From Crambe crambe (Eukaryota; Porifera; Demospongiae; Poecilosclerida; Crambeidae): 64,000 nt of DNA. Shown here in pieces: positions 13,838 through 61,831 of the stretch. The position numbers were made by a program, and so were the translations under genes. The notes under the pieces were generated by a model. It saw nothing but the letters and a program-made list of their open reading frames with translations. It did no database searches and was not told where the DNA came from. The stretch covers positions 2,232,001-2,296,000 of the forward strand of contig OZ004591.1 of the NCBI GenBank assembly GCA_963924555.1. The letters are read 5' to 3'. Within the stretch, counting starts at the first letter, position 1, and each line of letters starts with the position of its first letter.

Positions 13838-16800
13838 GTAAGTTCAGTAGTAACTCCTTTAAATTCAATAATGTATCTCATTATTTATTTCAGATCAGTG
13901 CAGTGATGTTGCATGTCAGACTGTTCCAGATCAGTGCAGCGATGTTGCATCTCAGACTGTTTGTAGCATGGAGACTTCAGTGAATGGTATGTGATGTTTA
14001 CATGATTTATACATTTTAATTTCTCCCCATTTAATATATACTTGCCACAAAATATTCAATGTATGGCATGATGTCCACCAGATAGCCAAGAATAATCATT
14101 TGTTATGACATAGCAGCTAGTGAGTATAGCCATGGATAAGCTTTTACTATTAATATTGAATTCACAACAGATCATCAGCGTGGGATGAATGTAGTGGGAT
14201 CTACCTCTTTCATCTACAGAGGAGAAGCTGTCAGCTTTACTTGGAATAACCATGGGGTCAATCTTCACCTCCCAGAGGATGCATTTACATCTGACATCAC
14301 TGAATGTCCTATTCATCTTGAGGCAGCAATATCTGGCCAGTTCCAGTTTCCTGATGGTACTGAGGTGGTGAGTGGTGTGTACCACATCCACAGCCCTGAG
14401 CAGTACACCAAAATGATGACCATCAAAGTCCAACACTTCTCCTCTTCTAGTTCCCAGAAAGAAGTTGATGACCTTTGCTTTGTCTCCAGTAACAGAGACC
14501 AGCTTCCCTACCTTTTCTCCTGTTGTGAAGAAGGCATATTCTCCATTGGTAGTCAGTATGGAGCCATTGAAACAAAAAGCTTTGGCAAGTTTGCAGTTGT
14601 GAGAAGAAAGAAGAAAGATCCTTTCTTTCAGAGCAGCACTACTTCTCATAACTTGTATCGAGCACATGTTTTGTATACCAAGAAAGATGACAGCAATTGG
14701 GTCATAATATATTCCATCATTCAACAGGCAGAACTATATTCCAAGGTAACCACCACAAATAAGAGTACAAGGAATTTTCATTATAACTTACTGTTATCTT
14801 CAGATACTGTTTGAGAAGTTTCCACGAGAGAGCCTATATGATGCAATTGATCAGCAAGTCACTTTCACACAAAGTGAGATCACACTCAATATCCCAGTAA
14901 CTGGTGTGGTTGTTAATAAGTGGACCATTAAACCTTTGACTGCACCAGTAGTAAGTTTGTCTTCCATGCATTTTAGATCAAAGTTACAATTATCCTCTTT
15001 TTTAGATCACAAAAAATGATGTTGATGCATTCAATACTGGCAAGCAGTTATCATTTTGTGAGCTTAATGTGTATAAAAGCCCTGAAGATGTTGGGTCTCC
15101 TTTGAAGTATCATATTGATCTCCTTGGAGCCAAGAAACCTCATGACTTCTTTGTTTTAAACTTTTCACCATCTGGTAAGCAATAATTTTAATCATAATCC
15201 TTTGAGTTCCTTAGCTTAAGATTCATAGTTGAAATCTTGCTTTGTGTTTCAGATGCTTCAGCTGGTACAATGACTCAGGATACTTTCTCTTTGAAGACTT
15301 CTGTGAATGGTGTGTATTCTCTATCATAATATCAATCAATTATAACGTTTCCTGTTTTATAACAGATTACCTTCGAGGAATGGATGTGATTGGGTCAACC
15401 TCGTTCATTTACAGAGGAGAAGCTTTCAGCTTCACCTGGAAGGACCATGGCTTCAAGCTACACTTACCTGAGAATGCCTTACCTCCCAATATTTCGGAGT
15501 GCTTTATTAAAGTCAGGGCAGCTCTTTCTGGCCAGTTCCAGTTTCCCGATGGTGCTAAGTTGGTGAGTGGAATCTACTCCATTCACAGCTCTCACTCCTT
15601 CACTCGGTCAGTGACTGTGGAAATTGAGCACTTCAGCACCACTGACACTCCAGAAGAAGCTGAAGAGCTAACTTTTGTCGTCAGCACTGGAGACAAACTG
15701 CCCTCTCAATTCCGTCCACTTAAGGATGGGATTTTTCCTGTTCACAGTCGATATGGAGCCATTGAAATGAAACATTTCTGCAAGTATGGAGCTATAAGAA
15801 CGAAAAAAGAGAAGAGGTCTGCTGATCGCAAGCAAGTGACTGAGAGACTCAGCTATAGCAAGTCTCGCAATTTGTATAAAGGTTGCTTACTGTATGATGC
15901 AACGAATCCTAGCAACAGTTGGGAAGTGTTATTCTCCATCATACCTAATTCAGAGTTACACTATGAAGTAAGACATACAATTGATACTTGACTAAGATAG
16001 CATTTGATGTTTCAAATACAGAGTCTCTTGAGGAGGTATCCCAAGGACACAGTGGTTGAACAACCTGTCATATTCAAGGAAGAGGAAATTCAACTGAGTA
16101 TTCCTGAAATTGGTCTCGTGGATGGAGATTGGATAATTCAGCCATTAGTGGCACCTTTTGTAAGTATTCAGTTTTTTAATGGAATCACATAGGACATAAT
16201 GATAGTAGTTAACTTTACAGTTTGAACACTTGAACTTAATTATTAGATTAAATTCTATTCTACTCCACAATCATTCAACAGATTCTCAAGTCTCATGTTG
16301 ATGCATACAGAGTCCACAAGCAGTTCTCAGTCTGTCAGTTGAGAGTTATCTACAGAGGTGGGGCATCAACTGGATCTGACCTCAGGCACAAGATTGACCT
16401 AGTTGGCGCTGAAAAACCATTCACATACTTTGTACTCTTTATTTCTTCATTTGGTGGTAAGCACGCAATTCTTGATTCTCTGCATGACTGTTTTGAGTGT
16501 GCATATTATGTTACACTTATAATCTCCTTGCAGTGTCTCCTTCAGTGAAATCCCAACCATCACCTAGTGATGATCATGGGATTCCCCCTGCAACATCATC
16601 TACTCATGTGAGTTCCTTCAACACCTCACGATGACATCTTACAGTTTATAATGCTTACAGATGAAGGCCAGCACTAGTCCACAAGTACCATCTCCTGAAA
16701 AAACTCGTGAGTAATGTCAAATACTGAGCTTATAGTAATTTATACTCCTAGCCTCATATCCAAGCCCTTATGTATTTCTACAAGAGCATGGATACAATAC

Positions 16801-17478
16801 ATGCAATACTCCAAGCTATTATAGATATCACTCTTGGCACTTAAAGCTCTCCATTTCATATCATGATAGTCAAACCTTAAAACATGCATCTTTCAATGTA
16901 ATGTTTGAGAAATGGCCAATTTAATTGCTGCATGGAACTGACTGAAAACTGACCCCTTATTTTTAACAACAAACAAACAAACAAAGCCAAAAAATGTTGT
17001 TGTTTGGTGCTTAGCTACATAGCTATTTTCATAGACTCTGTGAGTTGAACAGCTAACATACAACAAATGTGTGTACTTCACTTTAAAGCATTCCTCTGGG
17101 ATATCTGCTGATCACAATTATTGTTTCACATTAATAGAGTCTCAAGCTGCAATGATCACACCTCCTGGAAGGAACACCTTTCAGCCACCATCTCCTTCAC
17201 CTAAACTGCTCCTGCAAAAACCAACTCTCAAAGACCTCACGAGTGAACTCTACACTACGGTGCCCAGCGAATGGCGCTTCATTGGCATTCAACTACAGCT
17301 GAACTCAGGAGAACTGGACACGCTCAAGAGAATGGAAGACAAAGCAGCTCTCATTGAGGTTCTTGGAATGTGGCTGAAGACAGTGAACCCTCCCCCAACA
17401 TGGAGAGCCATCATAGATGTTGTGAGACTATTCAATCCAGGTCTAGCTGCTGCACTCACCACAAAATACTGCACATGA
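11716..17478 (+). CDS. ROC/COR GTPase - (ZU5-UPA)x2 - Death protein, copy A
   Basis: Twelve exons: 11716-13837, 13894-13986, 14171-14745, 14804-14950, 15006-15174, 15253-15309, 15366-15967, 16022-16159, 16282-16456, 16534-16607, 16661-16706, 17138-17478. They sum to 4,539 nt, 1,512 codons plus stop, with all phases consistent. Order: ROC-like GTPase (Walker A at residues 41-49, DSGGQ at 219, GTFKD at 311), COR-like region (about 380-500), first ZU5 (739-930), UPA (931-1036), second ZU5 (1055-1255), UPA (1256-1360), Pro/Ser-rich linker, Death (about 1415-1512). ROC-COR with Death is known from DAPK1, and ZU5-UPA-Death from UNC5 and PIDD1; this protein combines them. It starts at ATG 11716 because TAA lies in frame at 11710 and no acceptor can bypass it. 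A cytosolic signalling role in cell death or innate sensing is inferred. Confidence 0.8.
13894..13986 (+). CDS. Short linker exon with a duplicated splice acceptor (copy A)
   Basis: A 36-base unit (TTCAG/TTCCAG, then ATCAGTGCAGYGATG...) is tandemly repeated at the 5' end, giving two AG acceptors exactly 36 nt apart (exon starts 13894 and 13930). Both keep the frame and add or omit 12 residues around DQCSDVA. Copy B has a single unit (58026-58082). The exon links the COR-like region to the first ZU5. Confidence 0.7.
14171..14745 (+). CDS. First ZU5 domain exon (copy A)
   Basis: Acceptor CAACAG at 14170 and donor AAG/GTAACC after 14745 give 191 codons, phase 1 in and 0 out. The fold signature runs from VVGSTSFIYRGEA through LPEDAF, ISGQFQFPDG and VVSGVYHIHSPEQ to SIGSQYGAIETKSFGKF. 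ZU5 domains are beta-rich modules found in UNC5, ankyrins and PIDD1. At the place where PIDD-type ZU5 has the H-F-S cleavage triad, this copy has S-F-G (14578-14586), so self-cleavage here is unlikely. The exon end (NLYRAHVLYTK, IYSIIQQAELYSK) begins the UPA domain. Confidence 0.75.
14804..15174 (+). CDS. First UPA domain, two exons (copy A)
   Basis: Exons 14804-14950 and 15006-15174 are separated by a 55-nt intron. They read ILFEKFPRESLYD, EITLNIPVTGVVV, KWTIKPLTAPV and then NTGKQLSFCELNVYKSP and DLLGAKKPHDFFVLNFSPS. This is the conserved UPA module that follows ZU5 in UNC5, PIDD1 and ankyrins and packs against it. Similarity to copy B is high until the last few codons of the second exon, where it drops abruptly. 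Confidence 0.65.
15366..15967 (+). CDS. Second ZU5 domain exon with H-F-C motif (copy A)
   Basis: The exon has acceptor ATAACAG at 15365 and donor GAA/GTAAGA after 15967. It starts DYLRGMDVIGSTSF and contains ALSGQFQFPDGAKLVSG and RYGAIEMKHFCKYGAIR. H-F-C is encoded at 15773-15781 where PIDD1-like proteins carry H-F-S. By eye it is only about half identical at the amino-acid level to the second ZU5 of copy B, although the first ZU5 is far more similar between copies. A basic stretch (TKKEKRSADRKQ) follows, absent in this form from copy B. Confidence 0.75.
16022..16456 (+). CDS. Second UPA domain, two exons (copy A)
   Basis: Exons 16022-16159 and 16282-16456 read SLLRRYPKDTVVEQP, IQLSIPEIGLVDGD, WIIQPLVAPF, then VDAYRVHKQFSVCQLRV and KIDLVGAEKPFTYFVLF, aligning with the first UPA. 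Two short exons follow (16534-16607 and 16661-16706) that encode a Ser/Pro-rich linker (SPSVKSQPSPSDD; STSPQVPSPEK) leading to the Death exon. Confidence 0.65.
17138..17478 (+). CDS. C-terminal Death domain A exon (copy A)
   Basis: The exon follows TTAATAG at 17137 in phase 1 and ends at TGA. After a Pro-rich start (PPGRNTFQPPSPSPK) comes a Death-type six-helix pattern: LTSELYTTVPSEWRFIGIQL, ELDTLKRM, ALIEVLGMWLKTV, TWRAIIDVVRLF, LAAALTTKY. The W-R-F-I-G, W-L and T-W-R-A positions match the Death consensus. Death domains recruit adaptors by homotypic contacts. Copy B has no counterpart at this position and uses a different Death exon. Confidence 0.75.
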
Positions 17479-23500: not shown

Positions 23501-23580
23501 TGAAACATTCACAATTTTTTTCTTATTTTTTTATTTTACGTTACTATTAACTATTATAGTTACTGTGTTACTCTTCCAAG

Positions 23581-23957
23581 GTATTGATGATATTGGAGAT
23601 ATCTTTGATGAAGTGGAAAAGTTGTCTCCAAAATGGAAATTGCTAACAACTAAGCTGCGTCTGAGAAATCATGTAGTTGAGAATATCCAAGAAAATTGCT
23701 TTGATGTCATGAGTCGCCTGGATGAAGCCCTGAAAGAGTGGCTGAAGTTGAACTACAATCACCAAAAATATGGAAGACCAAGCTGGCGGAGGTTAGCAGA
23801 GGCTGTACGGAGTCTTGATTATGGACTCTTTGAGGAGATAGCCAGGAATCATGCAGGTGAGATGGTACAGTTTCTCTGTGAGAATAGATTGTTTATCATT
23901 TCCTTTGATGTGCAGCTCAAGATATGTCACAGAGTTGATATACACTCACTGAATTGA
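23581..23957 (+). pseudogene. Orphan Death domain B exon in copy A
   Basis: Preceded by a CTTCCAAG acceptor, this exon is nearly identical to the last exon of copy B: GIDDIGDIFDEVEKLSPKW, LTTKLRLRNHVVENI, LKEWLKLNYNHQKYGRP, SWRRLAEAVRSLD. It is a Death domain. No upstream exon of the copy A gene reaches it, because that gene ends at Death A (17,478) and the small preceding exon of copy B (60861-60899) is missing here. The frame is still open, so use as an alternative terminal exon remains possible. A 59-nt GTGAGA...GTGCAG stretch inside could be a mini-intron. Confidence 0.65.
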
Positions 23958-45412: not shown

Positions 45413-48400
45413 ATGGCATCTCCTCTCTATGAGCCTCCCCCTCGCTGGGGTCACTCTTCCTCCATCGTAGAAGGAAACCTCTTAATGTATGGAGGAAGAA
45501 CTAAAGATTTCTACAACCAAGTAGAGAACACCATCAACTTGTTTAATCCCTACGAGGAAAAATGGACCATACATATGTCTACAGGTCGTCCGATTAGAAT
45601 ATATGATGCTGCAAGTGCAGTACTAGGCAAAAATTTCTATCATTTCGGAGGAAATAGTGGTTCAAGGTATATAGGATATTTGTATCAATTGGATTCGACT
45701 TGGAACATCACAACAATGGACGACTTGGAACATCACAATAATGCTCCAATGAGAAAGCATGGCTCCAAGATGATAAGCCACAAAGAAAATCTAATCTGCT
45801 TTGGAGGTCGCGGAATCCCCTCCGCACCGCACCAACTTCAATCTCAATTCATCTTGGAGAACTACTATGATGATGGAAGTGGGTGGACAAATGAGTTACA
45901 CAGCTTTAACCTCAAAGAAGGTGAGGTAGAATATTAGGGGTGGTTAATGAGGTGTGTACACACCACTCTACTTCCTTCACTCTAAATTGACCCTATAAAT
46001 GTGGGAGTGGTTAGCTATGTTGTACTGTGCAAAGCACAAAATAGCAGTCTGTCATTATTTTATGGCAATTCAATGATGGTCAAGTTGACTGGACAGAAGC
46101 AACTATGTGCATATAAGTGACCTAGTAAACTGATATCATAAAAATATTCTGTGAATGACCATAATGTGGATGTTATTTCAGCTTTGACATGTGTAGCACA
46201 CAGTTCCTCCTATATTATACCATCCTCACCATCTTTGCTGAAACTGGATCTATAGGCTGCCTTTCTTGCAGGTTTATTTGTGTTGCAAGTCAGAAGTAAA
46301 TTAGAGCTCAATTTGGTATTTTAGTGCTAACCACTTCCCTCACAAAGCAGTAGATGTGACAATAGTGATTTAACTAGCTACTGGTAACTGGCTAGGTAGT
46401 AGCTCTATTAATACTGAAGCTAGCTGTCATAGATAAGATGATGAAGGCACTGGCAGAGACTGACTGAAGCTTTTTAGTGGGTGGATTGCATCCTCTCCAA
46501 TAAATTAAAAAATGGGAGTGACTTTATTTGGACCTAGTACCTATCTCAGAGGTCAACTATTATTAATTTTACACCACCATTTTTTCTTAACTCATTCAGG
46601 GAAGGTGGTTAATGTCCATGTCATCAATTGTCCAGTTTCATATATAAATGTATTGTTGTGTGCATGTGCATGACCTATAATAATTATTGGACATCATCAC
46701 GTGCTTCAGTCCACCATTCTACAAATCAAAATTTATATTAGCTAGCTCATTCTGGAGTGTCAGAGTACAGAGGTCATCCACTCATGGAGATCCACTTGAA
46801 CTGTTCAAGGTGAAATCAATTATCGGTAACATACAATTTGTCTATTTGGAGGCATCCAGTCTTCAGAGGTCAAAGTAATCATTAAATTCACACTTTCAAA
46901 TATTTGGATCTAATACTAGTAAGGTATAATGGAAACTACTTTTGAAATGTACAGTAGCAATAGCTGAGTACTAATTTATTCAACTCACTTATAATTGGGT
47001 TGATGGATGGTAAGTGAGGTAATATCTATTCATCTCTTTACTCTCACCTTTTATCCTTCTACATTTTAGAATAAGAGCATAATTATTAATAGAGCAGGTA
47101 ATATAAAATGATGTAGTTATTATTGCCATTTAATTCCAGTACAAATTGTGGCAGATAATCAAGGACTAGCTACTTAGACCTACTTATGTGTAACACCCAA
47201 CAAAGTTGTTCCTATCCTTATGCTTGAGATTAAGCAATGATGTTCCAGGCTCTGGGAAATGATGTCTGTGCTTTCTGTTGAAACACAACTATAAAAGGTT
47301 TATGGTCCTACTGGACCTCATCTCTTATAAATGTCATTCCTGAAAGATTTGACTCTTAACTAACCTCTGAGGATGTCAATAATATTTACTTCCAGATTTG
47401 TTTGTGACTCAGTGTTAAGTGCGACAACTATACAGTATTTGTGTGGGTGTCTATGGTATCAAAATGGACCCCTTTCCCATAAAAACTATAATTACTATTA
47501 ATCAAAACACAGACATAATAAAGATTCATAGAGTCCACTGAAGATGACTAGGGGCATGGAAATTATGCCAGCATAGTTTTGGGCATAATGGGTTGAACTT
47601 TAATGCCAGCACAATGCTGGCATAATATGGGATTTTTACTTCCAGGGGTTGGCAGATATGGAGGTATCGATGTCGACTCTTGAGTTCCTTTGTATAAACT
47701 GCTGAATTAGATAGTAACAAAAACAACAACAACAACAACAAAAAACTGTCTTCTGCTGTTTTTGATGATTAAAAGAGGCTACAATTATGGCTAGTGGCGG
47801 AGTTAGAAGTACCTATCCTAATTCACATCTTAAAATTTAGCACAGCCAGGGCCGGATCCAGGATTTTTAGATAGCTAGGTGGACTACACACTAGGCCATG
47901 GGGAAGGCTGCAAGAAAGAGCAAGTTATTTGGAGGATCCATTTTGGCTTGCAGGCTGCCACTTTTTGAGCATTTAGCATTTTTGCTTCATAATGCACAAA
48001 TTGGATCCAAGAAGTCCAAAATTTTCCCCAAATCTCCCTAGCACATATTTGTGTGCATTATATGACAGCATGAGTATAGGCAAAGGTGTGAACCATCTCG
48101 AAAATTGCTAGCTAGCTATTACACTCAAACTCTGAAGTGACACATACGAGGTCACTGAAGGAAATCACAGTTAGCAGGGGTGGCTGAGGACCCCAAAAAG
48201 TGGGGGGGGGGGGGGGGGGGGGTGCATCGATGACTACTCCCGATGAGCTGTAATGATATTCATAAAGGTTTTGATTCTATACATGTTGTGGCCAAACAAC
48301 AATGCAGTCACTAATGTGCAACATCATTTGTGACTTGAAATAATCCAGTCACTAATATGCAGTAACTAGACAGTAGATAATGGATCAAAAAAGTGGGGGG

Positions 48401-51400
48401 GGGGGGGGGGGGGGGCTCTAGCCCCTGTCGCCCCCACCCTCAGCCGCCACTGGTTAGTATGTCTAATGTGTGACCTTGAAAATGAAAGCCAAAGTCTTCC
48501 AAAAGATATCTTTAAAGTGACACATGCAAGATCACAGGTGTAATTGTTAAGGAAGTCTCAGTTAGTATGCACTGAGTTATCTAATGTGTGACCTTGAAAG
48601 TGCAAGCCAAAATGGATGCATCATGTATACATAGACCATTTCTTTCCTGACCATAGCCTTATATGATGATGGCTGTAGTATCTACATTGGTTAAGTTAGC
48701 TCATATATTATGTGTTCCTACTTTAGAGCAGAAACACAAGAAAAATAGATACGGCTAAGCAAATTGCAATATTATCTACAGGCTTAGCTTGGGAACAAAA
48801 GAGAGGGGGGGCCCTCAACCCCACCCCTGGATCCAGCCCTGACAGCATTTGCAATGAAAATATAAAAACGGGAGTGGTAGTGGGACACCCACTAATAAGT
48901 ACTCTTTTAGTAGAAAATCTTGGATCCGCCACTGTATGCTACACTTTTAAATTTTCTTACCAATTTTTTAAAGCATAATAGGCATTTTTGTTGAGCATAA
49001 TAGGGCAGGGGTTCTGGCATTGGAGCATAGCATAATAGGGAAGAAAAAAAGCATAATTTGCATGTCTCTAAAGATGACACCATGTTTGTATACAGAACTT
49101 TGAGACTATACATACTTTATACAGTCACATGTAGCTACACTGACATGCAACACATAATACACATCATTATGTACAGACATTCCCATCACCTTCACAGGAT
49201 TACCAATCTTTATCTTACTTTCCCCTAACTCCCTCAGGGACATGGTCCTCTCCCACTGTCACTGGAACAAGGCCCCCTCCCTGTGCTCACTTCACACTAA
49301 CGAAGATAAATGCAAACACAGCTGTGATGTTTGGAGGTGACCTACCTGGTGATAAGACAACCAATGATGTGTACATCCTTGATCTGACAAAAATGGTGAG
49401 ATGTAAAGTGTGGTATTAAAATATAGTGTCTGTTTCCATTGTACATTAATGAAGTAGATATTTCAGTATATGCTCTGACAGATGTGATGTACTGACTGGA
49501 TGTTATCATTGTAGCTGGTCCATTATGTCCCCATAGGTAGAGTGCCACCACACTCAGATAAGATATTCATCTATCAAGGTGAATATCCAAGAAATGGGAG
49601 GTCAAGTATGATCATGTGACTTGAGGACCACCAGGACCAATTATGACCATTGTTTATTTAGTAGTAAAAAATGAAACCATGAAACTTTTAGGCCATTGAT
49701 TTTATGATCATATTATATTGTGTTCAGCATGAAGTGAGTTCCATTAGGGAAATATAATAATTATGACCACTGATGAAAGAAGTTATTTAGAATTGTGAAT
49801 GTAGCAATCATTTAGGTTGATAGTTCACAAACCATGTGTCTTCATTTCTCATTCATATAGTAGCTAGTAGGAAAGTATTAAATGGTCCAAATTTCATATA
49901 ATTTTGTACAGCAGCAGAAATGATAATTTATAGTTCGACTTATTAACCATGTGTGCATAAGCCTAACAGCTAGCTGGCATGCTTGATTGGTAGCAGCTGC
50001 AGTATTGATTTTCAGCAAGCAAGCTTCATCTCTCCCTGACTACAAGGTGCTAATAAAGCTGTAACAGAAGTACGGAATTCCCTGAAATGAACGAGCTACA
50101 GCAAGTTCATAACTGAACCACAACTTTTCTTTATAGCAACCATTGTTACATCCCATGGTTTCAATAGATCTGATCTCTCCATTGCTGTGGCAGCAATTAG
50201 TCTTTTGAGTTGAGCATAAGAAATTTTAACCAACCCGTAAGTACCAACCTAATAATCTTTCTGTTAATTTGTAAATTGTGAAGAAGGGGCTAAGTGATAG
50301 TGTTTGTCCATGTGTACATGTGTTTATATCATTTGATTGCAATTAATTTTATAACAAATTTATACTTCTTTTTTCCGTCATATCTCTTCCCTTATTTTAA
50401 CTACCTTAAAATCTAACCCCCGTTATTGAACTCTATAGGTTGCCTAGAAATTCATTTGACAGTATTAGTCATCTGTTCTTCTACTGAGTATTATAGCTCC
50501 TTGAATATCAATGAATACCTAATTACTGATGGAGACACACTTAACAGCTTGGTAATTGTAATTGTAACCTTTTGTAGCACTGGAGAAAACTGGCCCATCA
50601 GGAGGGAGAACCCTGTCCAGTGGCTAGAAGTGACCATGCTTCTGTTTGTCTGGGTTATGATGGAGATCACCCCCAGATTGTTGTGATTGGGGGACTTGGT
50701 GGTGGCAACAAGGTTCTAAGTGACATGTGGCTACTTGATGTAGTGTCTGGGAGGTGGAGGGAGGTGAGTGATAAATTAGAATAAATAATAACATTGGTGG
50801 GCACTGAATCATTTAGAATTAAAATCTCCCTTGTTGTTCTTCACCTCCCATGTGGTGTTATTGTTACTGTTTGTGTTGAAGACACTCTCTAGTGGCATCA
50901 TATCAGAGCACTCTACAACAGTAGCATATCATCAGTTTAATAAGTGTCATGCAGATATTGACAATGTGTGGGTTTCAGTTGAGATATAATGTTATGTCCT
51001 TACTGCATCACACTCAATTGGTAGTGTTTCATTATAGGCAATTCTTTCACTTTTGCTGTGTGGAGTTGGAGTAAAAAGTGTGCATTGTTTTAGTTGTAGC
51101 TACGAGGAAGTGCTTTTCTACCAATTATAATGTTTATAGTTAATAGAATTTTCCTTTATCTTCATAATTGGAGTGAGCATAGCAGCACATTAAGAGTTAC
51201 AGAGGGTAATTAAATTTAGTCTGGGTATGGAGTAATCTGTCAGGTGTTTGGAAAAATGGTTGGCATTCCCTAGAATAGTTTTAAAATGACCACTGACCAA
51301 GTAGTTATTATAATTATTTTTATGATGTGTGAGTAATAACAGTAACATTTGTCACATAAATCATTGATAATCACTGTACACATTATCCACAACATGCTGT

Positions 51401-52288
51401 GTACCTCTCCATCTGCTAATAGGCAGGTGCTGCATGTATGAGTGTTTCTAATTACCCTCTTCATGTGTGCACAGCAAGTGTTAATCTGGACTTAAAATTA
51501 CTTGTTCATTTCCACTTGGACAGCTATACAAACTTCTATTTCCTCTAATAGCTCAAAACTGTCAAGTATTTCTTCAGCTCTGGAGTCCTAGTCTTCAGTT
51601 AGCTATCTAATTATTCCATTCCTAATTTGCACGTGAATGTGAAATTCATTGCCATGTCCATATACATGCTTGGGGTGTGAAATGTGAGGTTACCACATAT
51701 TAGAGTAATGTGATCCATTTTGCTATTTTAAGTATGTATGTTGCTATGTTCTGTGCTATCTTCAAAGTTCTAATGCAGTGGTACCTGATGACCTTTTTAT
51801 TAGCCAGTACTAACACCAATTATTGGCACCATGTAGTTTAGTATTAGAGGTCAAAACTAACAGTGCTGGAATTAACCATCTAGCACTTATTGGATTATTA
51901 TTTGTAGTCTAAAGTACAAATTATCATGAAATGACCTCCTTACTCCCTCTAGTTATGTGTGATATTTGCATGACATTGTCTTGATGAGGATGTATTTCAC
52001 AATGGCATAATATGGAGGTTTTTAAGTCTTGTGGTGTGGAGACTAGTGATGATGTGTGTATTGAAATGGAGGATGATGTCATGGTAATTGTGAGAGGGAT
52101 GATCCGTGTCCATGTGCAGATCAAAGTTCCAAGTTTCCAGTCAAGATGTGACCACACTGCTGATGTGTTCCATTTCAATGCAAGACTGGCGGATGTCATT
52201 CTATTTGGTGGGGTTCCTGAGTGGCCAAAGATTTGGAAGTCTGCTGCTGATTTTCCAATGATAGCCCAGACCACTGTACTACGATTTG
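45413..52288 (+). CDS. Kelch propeller exons 1-4 (copy B)
   Basis: Exon 1 (45413-45920) has LLMYGGRTKDF, FYHFGGNSGS and LICFGGRGIPS. Exon 2 (49238-49395) has NANTAVMFGGDLPGD and NDVYILDLTKM. Exon 3 (50578-50763) has HWRKLAHQEGE, QIVVIGGLGGGN and SDMWLLDVVSGRW. Exon 4 (52120-52288) has DVFHFNARLADVILFGGVPE. Each blade has the double glycine and following aromatic/hydrophobic strand of Kelch motifs. The count is about six blades when the circular closure by exon 1 is allowed. Exon phases are the same as in copy A. Confidence 0.75.
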
Positions 52289-55200
52289 GTGAGTGTGATT
52301 TAACTGATGCTAGTCATACTATACTTCATTCCTCCATAATATAAGTACAGTAGAAAGTCACTGGAGGTCTTTATTTCCATGTATTGTGAATACTTACATT
52401 TTAAGTGTGCATATTTTAATGTCTCTATTACCCACTGACTTAACATCTCTGTACAGTGGGACCTCTAAATAAGCAGACATGTCTGGAAGAGCATAATAGT
52501 CTCTTTATTTGGAGACATAGTGACATTACTGTAAATCTTCTATTTAGTGTGTTACTCTAATATAGTGTCACAATCACATTTAGACCCATTCTTATAATCA
52601 TGGCACTAAATGAAGTTTTAGTATGACATTGCACTAAGCACCACTCTATAATGCAGTCAATCTAGTCTAATAATAAACTCTCATTCTGTTGATGTGCCTG
52701 TCATGATTTTTTCTGGCATGTTAATTGGACAATTTATGGTATTGGATGTTCTATAGTAACTGTTGTTGTTTGTTGCACTTGTTAGGAAGTTGTGTTCGTG
52801 GTTTGTGCATGTCTTGTGTTGTGTGTGGTTACAAGCTATTCACAAGATTAGAGACAGGCAAGTCTGATGGTTTGCTTTAGAATGATTATTTCATGCTTTC
52901 TAAACACCCTATTCTTCTGGAGGTGAAACATACTTCACTTTCATTGGACCACCACACATCCAAACTCATTTAGACCAACTCCTTTAAATTTGGGATAATT
53001 GATTTGACATAAATCTACATAGAAATTGAGTTGGTTTAATCCAGTTTTCAATATTTAGCAAACTTCTTAACTTCTTAATTCCTTTTCAAATCATTCATTA
53101 TTTTCCTAACTCCTTTATCTGATGATAAATTTGTTCATGTAATAAGGTTTCAATATGCAAGGGTCAGCACCCTCGTAATCTTAGAGGTCGTATTTCTTGA
53201 AAAGAATTTCATGATTTTCCCCTTGCAATTTGCATATGCTGTATATAGCTACTTAATTACTATTTTATCAAGTGATCTCCACTTACCAACCACTCATTGA
53301 TAATTAATATTTCAAAATTAATAACTACCATCCATCATACTTTTTCATTTCTTCTCCACCACCTTGTGATATGAAGAATATCACTATAACTTAATACTAT
53401 CAACAGAAAACAATGTTCATCAATTTAATGGATATCACTTCTATTTCTCGTCTAGTTTCTAGTTACTAGATAGTTTCCATGCAGTAACTAGTTACCATAT
53501 GGTGGAAAATTTTCATTGAGTAAAACTTTCATGGATTCAGTTATTTTGAAAAAAATAATACACCAACATAATTTTTATGGTTCACATTGAGAAACAACAA
53601 CAGTATTTCCCAACCAATTAGCTAAGATTGATTCCTGTCAAAAGCTGGTCTAAACCTCCACCATAAATCTCACTATCATTTAATGACATACAAAGACACT
53701 CTTCAAACCTGAGGTCAACCATAACATAATTATTACTAATGCTAATTAGAATGTGTTGATAATGAGTGGAGTCTGATTGATGTGTGCAAGTTTCCTGACC
53801 TTGGGAGTCCAGAGAGAGTGAAAATGAAAGAAGAACTGAAGAAGAATTCCAGTAAGTGTGCATATGTAATTATAGAGTTAGTATCATATCAACCCTCAGT
53901 GCATGCACGAAGGTTACAGTACTCAATTGTGTATGTATTAATTAGTGTATCTGTTACATCCACCATGAAGCCGACCTCAACTACCGTATAGTGGGTATAT
54001 TTCAAGGGATAAAAGTTTTGCGATTAAACCTTTTTGTCTTATTTCACGGGGAAATCATTTGCAGTTTTGATTTTGAAAAAATAACCAAAAAACCTGACCA
54101 GCAGCCATGTGCACACGTGCATGCACACTGAGCTAGATTTATATCTAGCTAGCTGAAGCTTCGATGGCATGCAAATCTAGGCCATCTTTCGTTTGAGACT
54201 ATGTTCTAGACGGGTTAAGTTTAAGACGATATCTGGAGTGCAGCAGTTAGCAAAGTGTTATAATTATTGTGCAGTTATCCTTTTGCCATGGCATATCAAA
54301 GCCAGATCATGTGGCTCTATTTTACTTCAGTGAGGTGAGTCTATCCATTGTAGAGTCACAGACACATGAACTAGATGTAACGTGATTAGTCTGAGAGTCT
54401 GGGCCGAGTGAGACTATCTAGTGATTTGCCAAAGTGATTTGCGTGGTTAAATATTCGCAAACAGAAGAGAAATTGTGACATCTACGAAATTTTCACCTCT
54501 TGAAATATACCCGCTATACGATATACCCAAGTGATACTCTCCAGTGTATTCATAGTCTTTATTCCTAGAAAGATGGCAAGTGAGCTTCCTTACATATTCT
54601 TCAGCCAGCAATAATTTAAATTCAGCTTCAACATTGTCTAGACGATACTTTCCAGCATTTCAATAGCTTGCCTTACTCAGAAAACTCAGAAAGAAGACAA
54701 GATTGGTAGTAAATCATGAAAATGTAGACTGTGTACTTAATACCTTCAACTGATCAACGATCTCCTGCTCAATATCTGAAATGTAATGCAAATATCTACT
54801 TCAACACACACAGTACAGATAACTCAACAATTTATAGAGTAATTATGGTGAGTCTGAGCAATTCCACCATACATATATAATAATATAGAAACATTCTATG
54901 ATCATTCAGTATACGAGTTTAATTTGGCGGTGTATTAAATTTAATGGTTTGGCTGTCTGTCTTGGAACCACCAATAATAATGTCTGCCATTCAGAAACTA
55001 GCAGCATGCATTAGTGGCAAGTGCATGATAACGCGCACCGCCATGCCACCACACTTGGTAAATACCAAATAAAAGAGTTTTATTTGTCATTTGTATCAAA
55101 AGTAACACATATACCATAATTTTTATTTCCATACATGAATGTGTCTACTATACTTACCTTGTGCTGTACAGCAAAGTTTTCTTATGACAACGACCACAAG

Positions 55201-58200
55201 TATAACATGCACTCAGAGCATCATTAATACAAAATCACAAATAAACATCCACACAGAGCACAGACATTTTCCCCTCACAGTTTGAATACAATTATATACA
55301 CAGCACCCATGCTGACCTTATAACATGGAACCATCACCTTCAATGACAAACAACTCAAAGTGAGAGCTTTTCATTGAATGTAGCAATAATGGATGGGTGA
55401 TGGAACCCTTCATTCATGTCTGATCCACTTGAAGGATGGCATCCAGCATGGCTTCTTCAGGGAAGACTCTCTATTACCTCAAACTATGCATAAGTACTGC
55501 ATGCATCGAGCAAGCACAGAGAGCAGTGCACAGTTTATTGAATAATTATAACGAATACAATACACAACACCCAAACCTTATAACTTAGTTGGAACCATCA
55601 CCTTCAATAACAAACAACTCAAATGACAGTTAATTTCAGCTCTCAACAATCTATAACACATACAAACAAGCAATCCACCAAATATCTAATTTGATCATCA
55701 GGCTTGCACCACAATGCCCTGCATTTCTCTAGTAGAAAAAAATTTGTGAGTTGCTGAGATTCCCAATGATTGCAAGATACTATGAATTGCACTTTGCTGT
55801 ATGTAGTAGTCAATGTGTGCGCTGAGGGCTAATACTTCAGAGTGGATGGGTGATGGAACCCTTCACTTTATGTCTGATCCATTGAATTTAGTGATCGAGC
55901 AATACTTGAAGGAAGGCATCCAGCATGGCTTCATTCCATCAGAAGTTGCCAACTTCCTAGCTTATGGAGTTCCGGGATCAGGGAAGACGTCTCTCCACTA
56001 TTCTCTCTACGACCTCCCTGCACCGGAACTACGCATAAGTACTGCATGTATCGAGCAAGCACAGAGAGCAGTGCTAGTCACAAGAAGCAGTGAAGATTCT
56101 TCATCTGAAATCGTGATATGCAAACCAGTGGAAGAGCAAGATCTTAAAGAAATGCTTGCGAAAGAGATGACAGAAGAAAGGATAACCGAGGAAAAGAAAG
56201 AAGCATTTTCACGAATCGAAAAGATGCTGAAGAAAAATCCTCCAGTGGAAGATCGCTCGACTCGACCCGTGTCACCTCCCACTCAAGAGCCGACTCCAGT
56301 GCCACTGCAGCACTTACTTCAGCCTGTTTCAATTCCAGGGCCTTCCCCCACACCTGATGAAGAAGCTACTTCGCACTTAGTCATATCACCTCGAGTGAAA
56401 TTGCAAGGGATGGATGAAATCCTGTATTTGATGCTCCACCCCACCCCAGCCAACCTACCACGACTGAGAAATCGCTTGGTGCAATTCATCGACAGTGGTG
56501 GACAGCCCAAGTTATTGGAGATGTTACCTGCATATCTCCGAAATCTCTCCGGTTTGATGCTTGTGCATCGTCTCTTGGAGAGCCTCAGCACCATGCCCAA
56601 AGCCGAATACTGCGATAAAGATGGTAAGCTGTTCGAATTGGGTCACTTCAACCTGACCAATTTGGAAATGTTGGTGAAGTGTGCACAGCTCTCTCGTTAC
56701 CACCAGTCTCATCTGGCACTTCCTCACGTGGAATACGATGATTCACCTCCTGACATAGTAGTGGTGGGCACCTTCAAAGATCAGGAAGGCAAATGCAAGC
56801 AAACCAGGGAGGAGAAAAATGCTCAACTGGAAGTGGCATTTGAGCAGTTTGGCAAGAGCATCATCAGGCGATCAAATGGGGAGATCATCTTTGGTGTGGA
56901 TGCCACCTCTCGCAGCGATCCTGTAATCTTGGAGCTAAGAGCTGCCTTGAAGCATATGAAATGCCTGCACTACAAGTGCCCAATCCTGTGGTACCTCCTT
57001 GAGGTGGAGCTGAGGAAGCTGGGGAAGAAAGTTATTCCCAAAGAGTATGTCATGTCAATAGCCAAAGAGTTGCATATCGAAATCACAGAATCGATAGAAG
57101 CTGCATTGCTGTTTTGGCATGAAATTAATCTCATCATGTATTTTCCCAACATTCTTCCTGAAGTTGTCATATTCCAGCCAGATGCCATGATTGGAATGAT
57201 CAGTCAACTCTATGAGCAGCATGTCAAGATCAGTGACACTGCTGAATGCGATATTTCCTCTGAAGAAGATTTACGTTTTCGAGACCAAGCTGTCTTTAAT
57301 GATGATTATGCCCACCACATCAAAAATGAGACCATCTTGTCAGTGGATGAGCTCCTCCTTATCCTTCAGGACAGGAAGACCATTGCAAGATTGCCTTACA
57401 ATGATGACGGCTCCTCTCTATATTTCATGCCCAGCCTTTTAGAAGAGTTGACTGAAGATGGGTTTGCTGCTTCTCATTCTCAACTTGCTTCTCAACTTTC
57501 ACTCACTTCACCTCTGCTGGTCTCCTTCCCCACTCCTGAGGTTCCTTCAGGTCTCTTTTGCACTTTTATATCTGATATAGTCTCTTCCAGCGAGTGCAAG
57601 GTTCCTGACCTGGATAGTTCCACCAAGTTGTATAGGAACTTCATCTCCATCACTCTCAGCATCAGCCCAGTCTCTTTTGGTACTCTCACTCTGTACAACA
57701 CAGGAAAGATTTTCTCCATCACTCCTGATTCCATCTCCTCTTATTTGTTCTTGCCAAAAGTGAAGAAGCTTGTAGCTAAAGCTCTTGATGCTTCTTGTAG
57801 GGTGTTGTGTTACAGAAAGCTTCACCAGTTCTCCTTCCAGTGTGAGTGTGGCCAATCTCCTCCTCATGTTGCTCACCTTTCACCTGATGAGAAAGTGACC
57901 ATTTGCTCTTTGGATACTGCTAAAGGTGGAAATGATCTTACAAAGAAGCAAATTCTGTGGACAGGTAGGTTCAGTGATAACTGTTTTTTTATTCCTCTCT
58001 AATAATATTTTGTTACTTGTTCCAGATCAGTGCAGTGATGTTGCATCTCAGACTGTGTGTAGCATGGAGACTTCAGTGAATGGTAAATAATGTACCTTTT
58101 ACAAAGAATTATTGCCCCATTCTCCTGTATTCCTATTATGTCTCTTATTGCAATTTTATAATGTCATGTTTCCATTCATGTATATCTAGTCAGCAGGTAC

Positions 58201-61200
58201 AAAAGTGAATTCTACAGCAACCAAAGATGAGCATTTACTTTATGTATTTATCATACTATAGATAACCATCGAGGAATGGATGTAGTGGGATCATCCTCTT
58301 TCATCTATAGAGGAGAAGCTTCCACCTTTACTTGGAATAACCATGGCTTCAAGCTTCACCTTCAAGAAGGTGCATTGAGGTCTGACATCATGGAATGTCC
58401 TATTCATCTCAAGGCAGCAATATCTGGCCAGTTCCAGTTTCCTGATGGTGCTGAGCTGGTGAGTGGTGTGTACCACATCCACAGTCCTGAGCAGTTCACC
58501 AAAACAACGACACTTGAAATCCAGCACTTCTCGTCTTCTGATTCTCAGAAAGAAATTGATGACCTTTGCTTTGTCTCCAGTAACAAAGACCAGCTTCCCT
58601 ACCTCTTCTCCTTTTGTAAAGAAGGCATATTCTCCATTGGTAGTCAGTTTGGAGCCATTGAAACAAAAAGCTTTGGCAAGTTTGCAATTGTGAGAAGAAA
58701 GAAGAAAGGTTATTTTCCTCTCTTTCAGAGCAGCATTACTTCTCATAACTTGTATCAATCACATGTTTTGTATACAAAGAAAAATGACAGCAATTGGGTC
58801 ATAACATATTCCATCATTCAACAGGCTGAACTATATTCCAAGGTAACCACCACAAATATGAGCACAAGGAATTTTTATCATAACTTACTGTCATCCATCA
58901 GATACTGTTTGAGAAGTTTCCACAAGAGAGCCTATATGATTCAAGCAATCAGCAAGTCACTTTCACACAAAGTGAGATCACACTCAATATCCCAGTAACT
59001 GGTGTAGCTGTTAATATGTGGACCATTCAACCTTTGACTGCACCAGTAGTAAGTTTGTCTCCCATGCATTTTAGATCAAAGTTACAATCATCCTCTTTTT
59101 TAGATCACAAAAAATGATGTTGATGCATTCAATACTGGCAAGCAGTTACCATTTTGTGAGCTGAATGTGTACAAAAATCCAAAAGATGTTGGGTCTCCTT
59201 TAAAGTATCGTATTGATCTCCTTGGAGTAAAGAAGCCTCACGACTTCTTTCTTCTGAATATATCACCTCATTATGGTAGGCTTCATGCACCTTCCTTTGT
59301 ATTTTTAAACTATATTATGTTGTTGTTGTTGTTGTTTTTTGTTAATAGATATCCATGTGAACAACTTGAAAACTCAGACTGTAGTCCCCACTAATACTTC
59401 AGTGAAAGGTGTGTGTCATTATTATTGCTAGAAACTATTTGTAATAATTATTATTACAGAGTACAAACGTGGAGTGGATGTTGTAGGAACCACATCCTTC
59501 ATTTACAGAGGAAAGGCTACTAGCTTTGTTTGGAAAAATCATGGCTTTAGGCTCCACTTTCCAGAAAGTGCTTTGCCTCCTGGGATCACTGAGTGTGCCA
59601 TTCAAGTTAATGCAGCTCTCTGTGGTCATTTTGAATTCTCCAGCGATACTGAGTTGGTTAGCGGAGTTTACTACATTCGTTGCCATCACTCATTCACTAA
59701 GCCAGTGACTATGGAGATACAGCACTATTCTGCTATCAACTCCAAAGAAGATATCGAAGAACTCAGTTTTGCCATCAGCATTGGAGACGAGTTACCCTGT
59801 CAGTTCAACTTGCGTGAGAATGGAGTATTTGCTGCTCATTCTCAATTTGGGGCTATGGAACTTAAGCATTTCTGCAAGTATGCTATTGTGAGAAAAAGGA
59901 AAGAGAAGAGAAATGCTTCACATGTTCTCTACCGAGCATATTTACTCAATATTCTGAAGGATACTGGCAATGAGTGGGATGTAATATTCAGCATTATTCA
60001 AGATTCTGAACTCCATGCTAAGGTATAGTTGATTATAGTTTGAATTCCTCTATGATACTGGCTATTTTTCATAGGTATTGTTTGAGCACTATCAAATCGT
60101 TAGTACTCAGAATGTACTTGATCAGGAAATTATCTTCCTGGAAGGAGAGATTAAACTCAGCATTCCAATATCTGGTGTGACTGTGGATGATTCTTGGAGA
60201 ATACAACCTTTAACAGCACCTGTGGTCAGTTCTACAACAATTTCATTGCTGTTAATAATATTAATAACTTGCTATCTGCATGAGTATTTGTATCATTCCA
60301 GCTAGCAATTGGTACCATATGTTAGGTCCTTACATAGAATACTTACATTCTAGATCCAAAAGGAGATTGTGGATGCATTTCAGAAGAACAGGCAGCTGTC
60401 ATGTCGTAAACTGCGTGTGTATAGGACCTCTGAAAAAGCAGACCCTCGTCTAACTCATCAAATCACACTTCTTGGTGCCAAAGAGCCCAATAATGTTTTT
60501 GTTCTCTGTCTATTGTATCCTGGTATGTTAATTCATAATACTAACATTAAGTAGGTAGTATACATGTTAACATGTACAATAGCTATGAAAATGAATGAGA
60601 GTTATTATTATTTTTTTTGCAGTACCTTCTCCAGTGCAATCTCCGCCGTCATCTGGAAATGAACCAGGGATTTCCCCAGTAGCATCAGCTACCAATGTAA
60701 GTCACTTTAAGACCTCATGATCTCACCTAACTCATAACTGACAATAATAGGTGAGAGCCAGCACTAGTCCACAAGTCGTATCTCCAGAAAAATCTTGTAA
60801 GTACATAATGGTCCTTATATAATTTTATCACTGACTGTGACTGAGTAAATCCATTTACAGACCAGAACATACTGGCAACAGTAGATGACACAGACCTTGG
60901 TAAGCAAGCTATACACATACTTGTAGTTTGCAGTTACTGTTCATTCTTCCTTCTTTCTAAGGTATTGATGATATTGGAGATGTCTTTGATGAAGTGGAGA
61001 AGTTATCTCCAAAATGGGACTTGTTAGCTATGAAGCTACGTCTGAGAAATCATGCAGTTGAAAACATCCAGGAAAATTGCAGTGATGTCATGAGTAGCCT
61101 TAGTAAAGCCTTAAAAGAGTGGCTGAAGTTGAACTACAATCACCAAAAATATGGAAGACCAAGCTGGCAGAGGCTAGCAGAGGCAGTGCGGAGTCTCGAT

Positions 61201-61335
61201 TATGGACTCTTTGAGGAGATAGCCAGGAATCATGCAGGTGAGATGGTACAGTTTCTCCGTGAGAATAGACTGTTTATCATTTCCTTTGATGTGCAGTTCA
61301 AGATACATCACAGAGTTGATATAGCTACTCAGTGA
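45413..61335 (+). CDS. Kelch - ROC/COR GTPase - (ZU5-UPA)x2 - Death protein, copy B, 18 exons
   Basis: Exons: 45413-45920, 49238-49395, 50578-50763, 52120-52288, 53750-53851, 55841-57964, 58026-58082, 58262-58842, 58902-59048, 59104-59275, 59349-59408, 59460-60022, 60075-60224, 60354-60522, 60623-60696, 60751-60796, 60861-60899, 60962-61335. Total 5,679 nt, 1,892 codons plus stop, every junction GT-AG and in phase. Layout: Kelch propeller (1-340), charged linker (341-374), ROC-like GTPase with Walker A at 417-425 and DSGGQ at 592, COR-like region, first ZU5 (1102-1295), UPA (1296-1402), second ZU5 (1422-1609, HFC at 1558-1560), UPA (1610-1716), Ser/Pro linker, Death (1769-1892). No signal peptide or membrane segment is seen, so it is probably cytosolic. 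A sensor (Kelch), nucleotide switch (ROC) and adaptor-recruiting tail (Death) suggest a cell-death or immune signalling scaffold; the function is inferred. Prediction tools might split it at the 2-kb intron before exon 6. Confidence 0.8.
47157..48145. mobile_element. ~990-bp insertion specific to copy B
   Basis: Copy A runs directly from GTGGCAGATA to CGAGGTCACTGAAGG (about 4,080), while copy B has about 990 extra bases. The insert contains, in reverse orientation (47,530-47,770), a segment also present at 1,110-1,310 of copy A (AATGCCAGCACAATGCTGGC and neighbours). It also holds a (CAA)n tract at about 47,720 and a GGGCCGGATCCAGGATTTTT end motif at about 47,849. It seems composite, with nested elements; no gene is supported. 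Confidence 0.55.
48175..48452. mobile_element. MITE with poly-G core, copy B counterpart
   Basis: Same ends and GTTAG flanks as the element at 4114-4439. It has two long G runs (near 48,201-48,222 and 48,397-48,414) and internal deletions. Shared position shows insertion before the duplication; run-length differences arose later or reflect sequencing uncertainty in homopolymers. Confidence 0.65.
53750..53851 (+). CDS. Linker exon 5 between Kelch and GTPase (copy B)
   Basis: Acceptor AATTAG and donor CCA/GTAAGT define 102 nt, phase 1 at both ends. It reads ECVDNEWSLIDVCKFPDLG and PERVKMKEELKKNS. In copy B the next acceptor (ACTTCAG at 55,840) continues it as KWMGDGTLHFMSD, linking Kelch to GTPase in one frame. 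Copy A's exon (10044-10145) is nearly identical but has no in-frame partner. Confidence 0.65.
53982..54523. mobile_element. ~540-bp inverted-repeat element inserted only in copy B
   Basis: The left end TACCGTATAGTGGGTATATT and the complement of the right end (TATCGTATAGCGGGTATATT) pair over about 25-35 bases. Copy A lacks it between GAAGCC...GACCTC and TGATACTCTCCAG (about 10,270-10,300). The terminal TACCGTATAGCGGG is shared with the element at 39,202, so both are one family, probably Tc1/mariner-type with TA targets. It lies in the intron between linker exon 5 and the GTPase exon. Confidence 0.75.
55389..55530 (+). pseudogene. Deleted duplicate of the GTPase exon start
   Basis: ATGGATGGGTGATGGAACCC begins a second, shortened copy of the start of the giant exon. 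Internal deletions remove most of the P-loop region. It continues with TACTGCATGCATCGAGCAAG and ends at GAGAGCAGTG. Its flank (55,285-55,365; CTTATAACATGGAACCATCA) is repeated at 55,550-55,627 (TTGGAACCATCACCTTCAAT), showing a local tandem duplication whose first copy decayed. The sequence just before its ATG resembles copy A's junction rather than copy B's functional one. Confidence 0.7.
55841..57964 (+). CDS. Giant exon: ROC-like GTPase and COR-like region (copy B)
   Basis: 2,124 nt, phase 1 in and out. Key motifs equal those of copy A: GVPGSGKTS, FIDSGGQPKLLEMLP, GTFKDQEGK. The Pro/Glu insert is shorter than in copy A (one PVEDH repeat less), and SYNDDGS-type residues are added near RLPYNDDGSSLYF. 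The acceptor ACTTCAG is immediately followed by AGTGGATGGGT; in copy A about 14-16 extra bases with stop codons separate the two. Confidence 0.75.
58262..58842 (+). CDS. First ZU5 domain exon (copy B)
   Basis: 193 codons between CTATAG and AAG/GTAACC. It reads DVVGSSSFIYRGEA, ISGQFQFPDGAELVSGVYHI and SIGSQFGAIETKSFGKFAIV. S-F-G at 58669-58677 replaces the possible H-F-S/C cleavage triad, as in copy A. Intron 7 before it (about 180 nt) differs from copy A's, with an insertion of AGCAGGTACAAAAGTG-type sequence. Confidence 0.75.
58902..59275 (+). CDS. First UPA domain, two exons (copy B)
   Basis: 58902-59048 and 59104-59275 read ILFEKFPQESLYDSSNQQ, ITLNIPVTGVAVN, MWTIQPLTAPV and VDAFNTGKQLPFCELNVYKN, DLLGVKKPHDFFLLNISPHY. 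Similarity to copy A collapses in the last codons (NISPHY against NFSPS) and in the following intron, marking a recombination boundary. Confidence 0.65.
59460..60022 (+). CDS. Second ZU5 domain exon with H-F-C motif (copy B)
   Basis: 187 codons; starts EYKRGVDVVGTTSFIYRGKA and contains NAALCGHFEFSSDTELVSGV and QFGAMELKHFCKYAIVRKRK. H-F-C lies at 59867-59875. PIDD1 and NUP98 self-cleave at H-F-S by a nucleophile attack on the preceding peptide bond; cysteine could serve the same role (inference). It is much less similar to the copy A exon than the first ZU5 is. Confidence 0.75.
60075..60522 (+). CDS. Second UPA domain, two exons (copy B)
   Basis: 60075-60224 and 60354-60522 read VLFEHYQIVSTQNV, EIKLSIPISGVTVDDSW, IQPLTAPV, then VDAFQKNRQLSCRKLRVYRT and ITLLGAKEPNNVFVLCLLYP. 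Three short exons (60623-60696, 60751-60796, 60861-60899) then carry a Pro/Ser linker (VPSPVQSPPSSGNEPG; STSPQVVSPEKS) and YQNILATVDDTDL into the Death exon. Confidence 0.65.
60962..61335 (+). CDS. C-terminal Death domain B exon (copy B)
   Basis: It begins after CTAAG in phase 1. Death pattern: DIGDVFDEVEKLSPKWDLLA, KLRLRNHAVENI, LSKALKEWLKLNYN, RPSWQRLAEAVRSLDYG, LFEEIARNHA. Unspliced, it ends at the TGA at 61333-61335 after an FIISFDVQFK tail. Alternatively a 59-nt GTGAGA...TGTGCAG mini-intron from 61,238 would give the short end VQDTSQS, and copy A's orphan would give AQDMSQS. Conservation of both ends leaves the choice open. Confidence 0.7.
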
Positions 61336-61831
61336 ATACGCATGAACAAACACTTGACACTCACCATGCATAGTACCCACACACTTTGTAGCACACTCCA
61401 TTATGCATTTATTGTATTCTATAATGCACTTTTCTATAGTTTCTATAATAACTGTATTAATTTTTTCACTAACTTCCTTATGAAAATATCCTTGATTTTT
61501 CTGTGCAACTGCATGAAATTGTCTTTACCATATCAGATCATAATTGGTAGACCTTTTCATATTTCAGCTGTGACTCTGAGAATCTTTTATTGTAGGACTA
61601 AACAGTAGCTAGGACTATCATAATGTATTGTTTAAACTGTGTGTGTGTGAACAGTACAATTATAGTCTCCCTAACCCCAGCCCTTGGGAAGATTGTTGCA
61701 TCTAGCTATAAACAGAATGTAGGTATATATTTAGCAGGCCAGCTTTTAACTTGGTAAAGATCGTGAAATGGATATTGCAATCTTGCTCATTTACTGGTGT
61801 GGTTTTCATTATAACGTCCTTTACCTATTAG

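What the first reader, a model, noticed from the sequence alone, without database searches (positions are those of the whole stretch)
45413..61335. Unusual architecture: Kelch + ROC/COR GTPase + two ZU5-UPA modules + Death in one protein
All 18 exons join in phase to 1,892 codons. ROC-COR-Death (DAPK1-like) and ZU5-UPA-Death (UNC5/PIDD-like) are known separately. Here they are combined behind a Kelch propeller, with ZU5-UPA doubled. It reads as a sensor, a GTPase switch and a death-fold output in one chain, in a tandemly duplicated family, which is typical of innate immune receptors.
Basis: partly seen in the sequence, partly recalled or inferred. Interest (0 to 1): 0.92.

Follow-up and report, generated by a model that had tools for sequence, protein, structure and literature searches.

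The report
Kelch–Roco GTPase–Death receptor-like gene array
A sponge-like animal genome holds a tandem array of genes that each seem to join a fast-evolving Kelch propeller, an LRRK2-type Roco GTPase switch and a cell-death output domain in one cytosolic protein, within a set of Roco loci larger than any count I found in print, which points to a little-studied kind of candidate immune receptor.

The parts
45413..45920 (+). Exon 1: start codon, Kelch propeller (first blades)
   Evidence: 15 copies in array 1
49238..49395 (+). Exon 2: Kelch
50578..50763 (+). Exon 3: Kelch
52120..52288 (+). Exon 4: Kelch
53750..53851 (+). Exon 5: linker after the propeller, phase-1 donor; identical protein in paralogue A
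55841..55891 (+).
   Evidence: stops in or just before it in the other copies; conserved acceptor follows it
55892..57964 (+). Exon 6 as corrected: whole ROC GTPase, COR-A and COR-B in one exon; P-loop codons from 55,966, G3 DSGGQP from 56,491, G4 GTFKD from 56,767
58026..58082 (+). Exon 7: short linker
58262..58842 (+). Exon 8: ZU5-1 (SFG at the cleavage position) and start of the next module
58902..59275 (+). Exons 9 and 10 (58,902-59,048 and 59,104-59,275): UPA-1 by position
   Evidence: UPA label not confirmed
59349..59408 (+). Exon 11: short linker
59460..60022 (+). Exon 12: ZU5-2, with HFC at 59,867-59,875, and start of the next module
60075..60522 (+). Exons 13 and 14 (60,075-60,224 and 60,354-60,522): UPA-2 by position
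   Evidence: UPA label not confirmed
60623..60899 (+). Exons 15-17 (60,623-60,696; 60,751-60,796; 60,861-60,899): Pro/Ser-rich linker
60962..61335 (+). Exon 18: Death domain and stop
   Evidence: Pfam Death 25.0 bits, cut-off 22.6
2325..17478 (+). Paralogue A of the same gene, with a different Death-like last exon (17,140-17,475)
   Evidence: no Pfam match for that last exon
23580..23954 (+). Second, B-like Death exon downstream of paralogue A
   Evidence: Death 23.7 bits, cut-off 22.6; 89% identical to exon 18

Best explanation
The locus encodes one cytosolic multidomain protein of 1,875 residues: Kelch propeller - ROC - COR-A - COR-B - ZU5-1 - (UPA-1) - ZU5-2 - (UPA-2) - Death. It belongs to a tandemly duplicated family of Roco GTPases. 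Shown: exon phases, a conserved splice acceptor, the ROC-COR fold, Kelch and Death matches, the arrays, and fast Kelch beside constrained ROC-COR evolution. Inferred: the Kelch propeller binds a ligand (microbial or altered self); binding changes the GTP state and dimerisation of ROC-COR, as in LRRK2 and bacterial Roco; this frees or clusters the C-terminal Death domain, which recruits Death-domain adaptors and starts cell death or an NF-kappaB-like response. The invariant HF-C at the end of ZU5-2 is possibly a self-cleavage site, as HF/S is in PIDD, so that a UPA-Death fragment (residues 1543-1875) stays bound until the receptor is activated. ZU5-1 (SFG) cannot cleave in this way.
Against: No transcript was available, so no splice is proved. 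UPA was found by no test. The ZU5 AlphaFold model failed (pLDDT 37.4). ZU5-2 and Death straddle their Pfam cut-offs depending on the length given, and the window's own COR-A is under the cut-off. A Kelch dN/dS of 0.72 is under 1: relaxed constraint explains it as well as selection for diversity. HF-C has Cys where the studied proteins have Ser, and another ZU5 ORF (L001) has HFC too, so the motif may be structural. Reading past the exon 5 donor runs on for 46 codons to a stop at 53,991, so a short Kelch-only product is not excluded. No ligand, adaptor or immune function was tested.
Confidence: 0.6

Rival explanations
1. Two neighbouring genes: a Kelch gene (exons 1-5) and a ROC-COR-ZU5-Death gene that starts at the ATG of WMGDG just before the conserved acceptor.
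For: In most copies an in-frame stop lies just before WMGDG or WMSDG and the frame from that ATG is open; reading past the exon 5 donor gives a stop at 53,991; in a third array one member has Kelch without ROC-COR.
Against: L016 and L033 have stops between that ATG and the acceptor; apart from that one TGA, L016 is open over the searched 707 codons. Kelch precedes ROC in 24 of 24. Exon 5 has a phase-1 donor that fits the acceptor, about 330 bases away in L016.
Confidence: 0.12
2. A housekeeping Roco scaffold or cytoskeletal regulator that happened to be duplicated, not a receptor. Death and ZU5 modules serve as plain docking sites.
For: Human Roco proteins and UNC5/ankyrin ZU5 proteins are mostly not pathogen sensors (established knowledge, recalled). 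No part is clearly above dN/dS 1: exons 2, 3 and 9 reach 1.03-1.07 on 8 to 14 changes each, the longer parts are below.
Against: 15 + 9 tandem copies; cassette exchange (dS 1.3-1.6 in exons 12-13 against 0.05-0.46 in the other exons); two kinds of last exon in the family; Kelch exon 1 with about three times the dN/dS of ROC-COR.
Confidence: 0.2
3. Allorecognition or damage-sensing: the array senses self/non-self tissue or cell damage, with the same sensor-switch-Death layout. This overlaps with the best explanation and differs in the ligand.
For: PMC8195603 (passages) names self/non-self recognition in sponges among the uses of cell death, and reports TRADD-N expansions in sessile marine animals.
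Against: Nothing in the sequence points to self ligands; not separable from pathogen sensing with these data.
Confidence: 0.2
4. Many copies are pseudogenes and the array is a decaying satellite of a few working genes.
For: L016 and L023 hold a stop in the searched frame, L033 and the C6 copy are broken, and some ZU5-2 copies are split.
Against: 22 of the 24 full-length C14 copies have no stop inside their exon-6 match, and L016's only stop lies before the conserved acceptor. ROC-COR dN/dS is 0.22 in five genes.
Confidence: 0.05

Closest known systems
Roco proteins (LRRK1/2, MFHAS1, DAPK1, bacterial LRR-Roc-COR)
   Same: ROC GTPase followed directly by COR-A and COR-B. A review already lists WD40 and Kelch propellers among the parts that flank Roc-COR in the Dictyostelium/metazoan group (PMC6320773, passages), so Kelch beside ROC-COR is not new in itself.
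   Different: No LRR, kinase or ankyrin match; ZU5 modules and Death behind; a long low-confidence insertion (132-184 of the model) between P-loop and G3
DAPK1
   Same: ROC-COR followed by a C-terminal Death domain
   Different: DAPK1 has a kinase and ankyrin repeats in front (PMC6320773, passages); none found here
PIDD1 / NLRP1 / CARD8 (ZU5-UPA/FIIND with death fold)
   Same: ZU5 before a C-terminal death-fold domain; HF-x at the end of ZU5, at the self-cleavage position
   Different: Cys instead of Ser after HF; two ZU5 modules each followed by a UPA-like stretch; Kelch and ROC-COR instead of LRR or NACHT
Brown-algal Roco genes (PMC11378527: abstract and two sections read)
   Same: Expanded, exon-shuffled Roco family put forward as candidate immune receptors; diversifying N-terminal repeats
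   Different: 9-47 genes per species, described as LRR-ROC-COR only
Placozoan and cnidarian Roco proteins (PMC4104024 and PMC5094078, passages)
   Same: ROC-COR joined to Death, CARD or TIR
   Different: At least 17 genes in Trichoplax; the passages seen name no Kelch or ZU5 partner
Sponge NLRs (NACHT-LRR; PMC12909245, passages)
   Same: Expanded nucleotide-switch receptors, some with Death; NACHT-ZU5 combinations are listed
   Different: No NACHT or LRR match here; the switch is a Ras-like GTPase

Membership tests
Roco (ROC-COR) proteins | ROC GTPase with P-loop, DxGGQ and TxxD motifs | tested here: met
   GVPGSGKT, DSGGQP, GTFKD; G42, G45, G47, K48, G219, G220, Q221, T310, D313 of P0001 invariant or nearly so in 51 sequences; Pfam Roc at E up to 0.1 in 22 of 51 members, not in the window's own
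Roco (ROC-COR) proteins | COR domain directly after ROC | tested here: met
DAPK family | protein kinase and ankyrin repeats before ROC-COR | tested here: not met
   no such Pfam match at E up to 1
Kelch propeller | repeated Kelch motifs forming a propeller | tested here: met
   PF24681 140.1 bits (cut-off 50), PF24981 96.9 (50) and five Kelch repeat models over their cut-offs
ZU5 | Pfam ZU5 over cut-off | tested here: met
   ZU5-2 23.6 bits, cut-off 21, in the 810-residue half but 20.2 alone; ZU5-1 by 48% identity to ZU5-2
UPA | UPA domain after each ZU5 | tested here: inconclusive
   no Pfam hit in window or genome (no control rang in 68); profile against UNC5B no better than shuffles, but the same test also missed ZU5
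Death domain | Pfam Death over cut-off | tested here: met
   25.0 bits for exon 18, cut-off 22.6; 20.5 in the longer chain
PIDD/FIIND self-cleaving ZU5-UPA | HF/S or SF/S at the end of ZU5, self-cleavage | tested here: inconclusive
   HFC at the aligned place in 28 of 28 ZU5-2 sequences; Cys not Ser; cleavage not testable here
NLR | NACHT with LRR | tested here: not met
   no such Pfam match at E up to 1
Innate immune receptor | binds a microbial or danger ligand and signals | not testable with these tools
   no expression or binding data

The most novel reading that the evidence does not exclude
This animal runs a Roco-based receptor system beside its NLRs: some 239 or more ROC-COR loci with interchangeable sensor parts (Kelch here, others elsewhere), ZU5 modules placed before or after the switch, and exchangeable Death outputs. 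The Kelch branch couples a GTPase switch to a PIDD/NLRP1-like self-cleaving ZU5 that uses Cys (HF|C). LRRK2 and DAPK1 would then be the few human survivors of an old sensor family.
Probability: 0.4. Interest if true: 0.88.

Novelty: new variant of a known kind. Interest (0 to 1): 0.73.

Why it matters
What Roco GTPases were for before LRRK2 became a Parkinson's gene is open. An animal with a large, tandem, part-swapping Roco family fused to death folds would make an immune origin directly testable. It also gives a natural protein in which a Roco switch and a ZU5–Death output sit in one chain, so coupling between GTP state and death-fold assembly can be measured. If HF|C cleaves, self-cleavage before a death fold is older and chemically broader than PIDD and NLRP1.

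Tried and rejected
HFS in 'IQHFSSS' of ZU5-1 looked at first like the PIDD site. The alignment puts it at the 'PHCA' strand of UNC5B, so it was dropped for the later HFC.

The search with the whole chain found nothing (7,992 candidates scored over residues 375–1892, none at E 0.001); exon 6 alone found 54 relatives, the window's own included. ZU5 AlphaFold with 8 sequences failed and was not used further. The PDB profile search with 12 ZU5-UPA sequences found no ZU5 structure. hhalign and HMM tests against UNC5B had no power. Pfam UPA gave no match in the genome, and none in its controls. The VIA table covers only chains on Foldseek's own list.

In one search exon 5 was out of frame; the right value is (33 codons, no protein change). 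Copy A's exon 6 core there had a length of remainder 2 and was cut to whole codons. The dN/dS uses five of the 15 array-1 genes, because only 3 of the 13 further Kelch exons asked for could be fetched. In one search, 72 modules were assembled; rows with stops and identical rows were dropped, leaving 48. L020 and L044 cover the same gene, so the 48 sequences are not 48 genes. The acceptor count (25) uses L009–L033; L034–L038 overlap L033 or are C6 fragments and were left out. The count of 239 merges 282 rows of three searches that score only part of their candidates (150 of 339, 63 of 487, 62 of 476), and includes fragments.

Whether the architecture is in print: the listings (up to 20 papers each) and the passages read showed none; most subscription journals are not in that library.
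Full report
What is there. The window lies at C14:2,232,001–2,296,000 of a 143 Mb, 119-contig genome. A tandem paralogue (A, from 2,325) has the same order of exons: exons 1–10, 12–14 and 16 match clearly, exon 11 only as an exon-7-like piece, exon 15 weakly (E 0.23), exon 17 (13 residues) was not found, and the B-like Death exon lies far downstream at 23,580. So the gene model is not chance.

The exon 5–6 join. I compared exon 6 and its 5' flank in 25 copies of the genome. The acceptor at 55,841 occurs as such only in this gene and in L010, where TAG follows at once. The other 23 have an in-frame stop at or just before WMGDG/WMSDG; L016 also has a TGA inside that stretch and L033 is broken there. 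All 25 share [CT]TGAATTTAG|T at 55,892, in the right phase for exon 5, 51 bases further on. The protein is then 1,875 residues. Between that acceptor and the P-loop there is no in-frame ATG, so exon 6 needs an exon before it. In L016 exon 5 ends about 330 bases before the acceptor; exon 5 was not looked for further upstream in the other loci, which end 1.5 kb before exon 6. All 24 full-length ROC exons of this family on C14 have a Kelch first exon 6.5–12.8 kb upstream on the same strand; two further Kelch first exons in the second array (5,334,534 and 5,506,860) have no ROC exon in the list. I take it as one gene, but no transcript was seen, and a short Kelch-only product ending at 53,991 is not excluded.

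The HF-C site. In all 28 distinct ZU5-2 sequences HFC stands at the end of ZU5; in all 20 distinct ZU5-1 sequences SFG (18) or SFR (2) (some genes are there twice). In the alignment it falls on L|G of UNC5B 3g5b. PMC3210808 (passages) equates that Leu with Phe-296 of CARD8, which cleaves itself at SF/S, and reports HF/S in PIDD. It also says that Ser, Thr or Cys can start such reactions. Cleavage at HF|C is therefore a fair prediction and no more. Another ZU5 ORF of the genome (L001) has HFC too, and L004 has HFS. In 8 of 24 copies (L019–L023, L028, L030, L031) the HFC type directly follows exon 6, and 16 have the SFG/SFR type there.

Evolution. Over five of the 15 array-1 genes, pooled dN/dS is 0.72 for Kelch exon 1 and 0.22 for ROC–COR; for the A–B pair, Kelch exons 1–4 against ROC–COR gives Fisher P 1e-5. 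Between A and B silent divergence is 0.05–0.46 in the other exons measured but 1.3–1.6 in exons 12–13 and saturated in exon 14. The gene's ZU5-2 is 80–82% identical to genes elsewhere on C14 (5,712,232; 5,075,154; 5,047,048) but only 55% to A's. So this cassette was exchanged between lineages. Two kinds of last exon occur: the exon-18 kind, and the kind at 17,140–17,475, which is also in L050, L054, L062, L066 and L067 but has no Pfam match.

The wider family. Pfam COR-A has 150 scored matches in the genome, 149 over the cut-off, out of 339 candidates. Joined with the searches by P0001 and P0048 this gives 239 separate places after merging. The searches are capped, so more may exist; fragments and pseudogenes are included. 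NACHT gives 103 scored matches of 232 candidates. In 24 of 63 ZU5 places a ROC–COR lies 2.6–3.3 kb downstream on the same strand, on C3, C12 and C5: the same two modules in another order. One member on C11 seems to be ROC–COR followed by a Death-like exon (19.5 bits, under the cut-off); the ZU5 search, which scored all its 108 candidates, has no match on C11. In a third Kelch array (24 first exons at C14 4.12–4.45 Mb) the one member read has a stretch that looks like a coiled coil where ROC–COR stands here (by eye). PMC11378527 calls its 9–47 genes per brown alga more than in other species, with 4 in human, 11 in Dictyostelium and at least 17 in Trichoplax.

Against novelty. A review already lists Kelch propellers among the parts flanking Roc–COR (PMC6320773, passages), and ROC–COR with Death, CARD or TIR is known in placozoans and sea anemones. 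What I did not find in print is the whole order, the ZU5 link, or a count of this size in one animal.

Mechanism. Shown: the parts and their constraint. Inferred: Kelch senses, ROC–COR switches and dimerises, ZU5-2 holds or releases UPA–Death, Death recruits adaptors. Confidence 0.6 for the sensor–switch–Death layout as an immune or self/non-self receptor, about 0.35 for self-cleavage.

Membership. It is a Roco protein by tested features. It is not a DAPK or an NLR. It works like PIDD/NLRP1 at its C-terminus if HF|C cleaves; it is not filed as one.

Noticed in passing
G000, 18 contigs: 239 ROC-COR places after merging three capped searches, fragments included, far above the numbers per species in PMC11378527.
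   Followed up: partly
C3 7.48-7.83 Mb, C12, C5: 24 ZU5 places with a ROC-COR 2.6-3.3 kb downstream: ZU5 before the GTPase, the reverse of the order here.
   Followed up: partly
L071 (C14:4,236,400-4,241,000, minus strand): Kelch exons followed by a stretch that looks like a coiled coil instead of ROC-COR, in a third Kelch array of 24 first exons.
   Followed up: partly
17140-17475 and 23580-23954: Paralogue A is followed by two different Death-type exons about 6 kb apart; may be alternative last exons or a remnant.
   Followed up: partly
55390-55529: Broken partial copy of the start of exon 6 inside intron 5 (93-97% identical pieces).
   Followed up: no
24567, 24951, 25919, 26265, 28131, 28753, 34579, 61768, 62145, 63140, 63494: Repeated exon-like pieces (78-98% identical protein) downstream of both genes; the ORF at 61,750-61,992 has no Pfam match.
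   Followed up: no
L001 (C15:2,654,425-2,657,691): 580-residue ORF with a ZU5 of 45.5 bits that also ends in HFC; looks UNC5-like by eye.
   Followed up: no
L055, L059, L063 (C14 2.50, 2.03, 2.17 Mb): Downstream of single-ZU5 copies lies a further, partly broken ZU5-2 to Death unit of the kind used by this gene; a possible donor of the exchanged cassette.
   Followed up: partly
48202-48222 and 48395-48415: Two runs of 21 G in intron 1.
   Followed up: no
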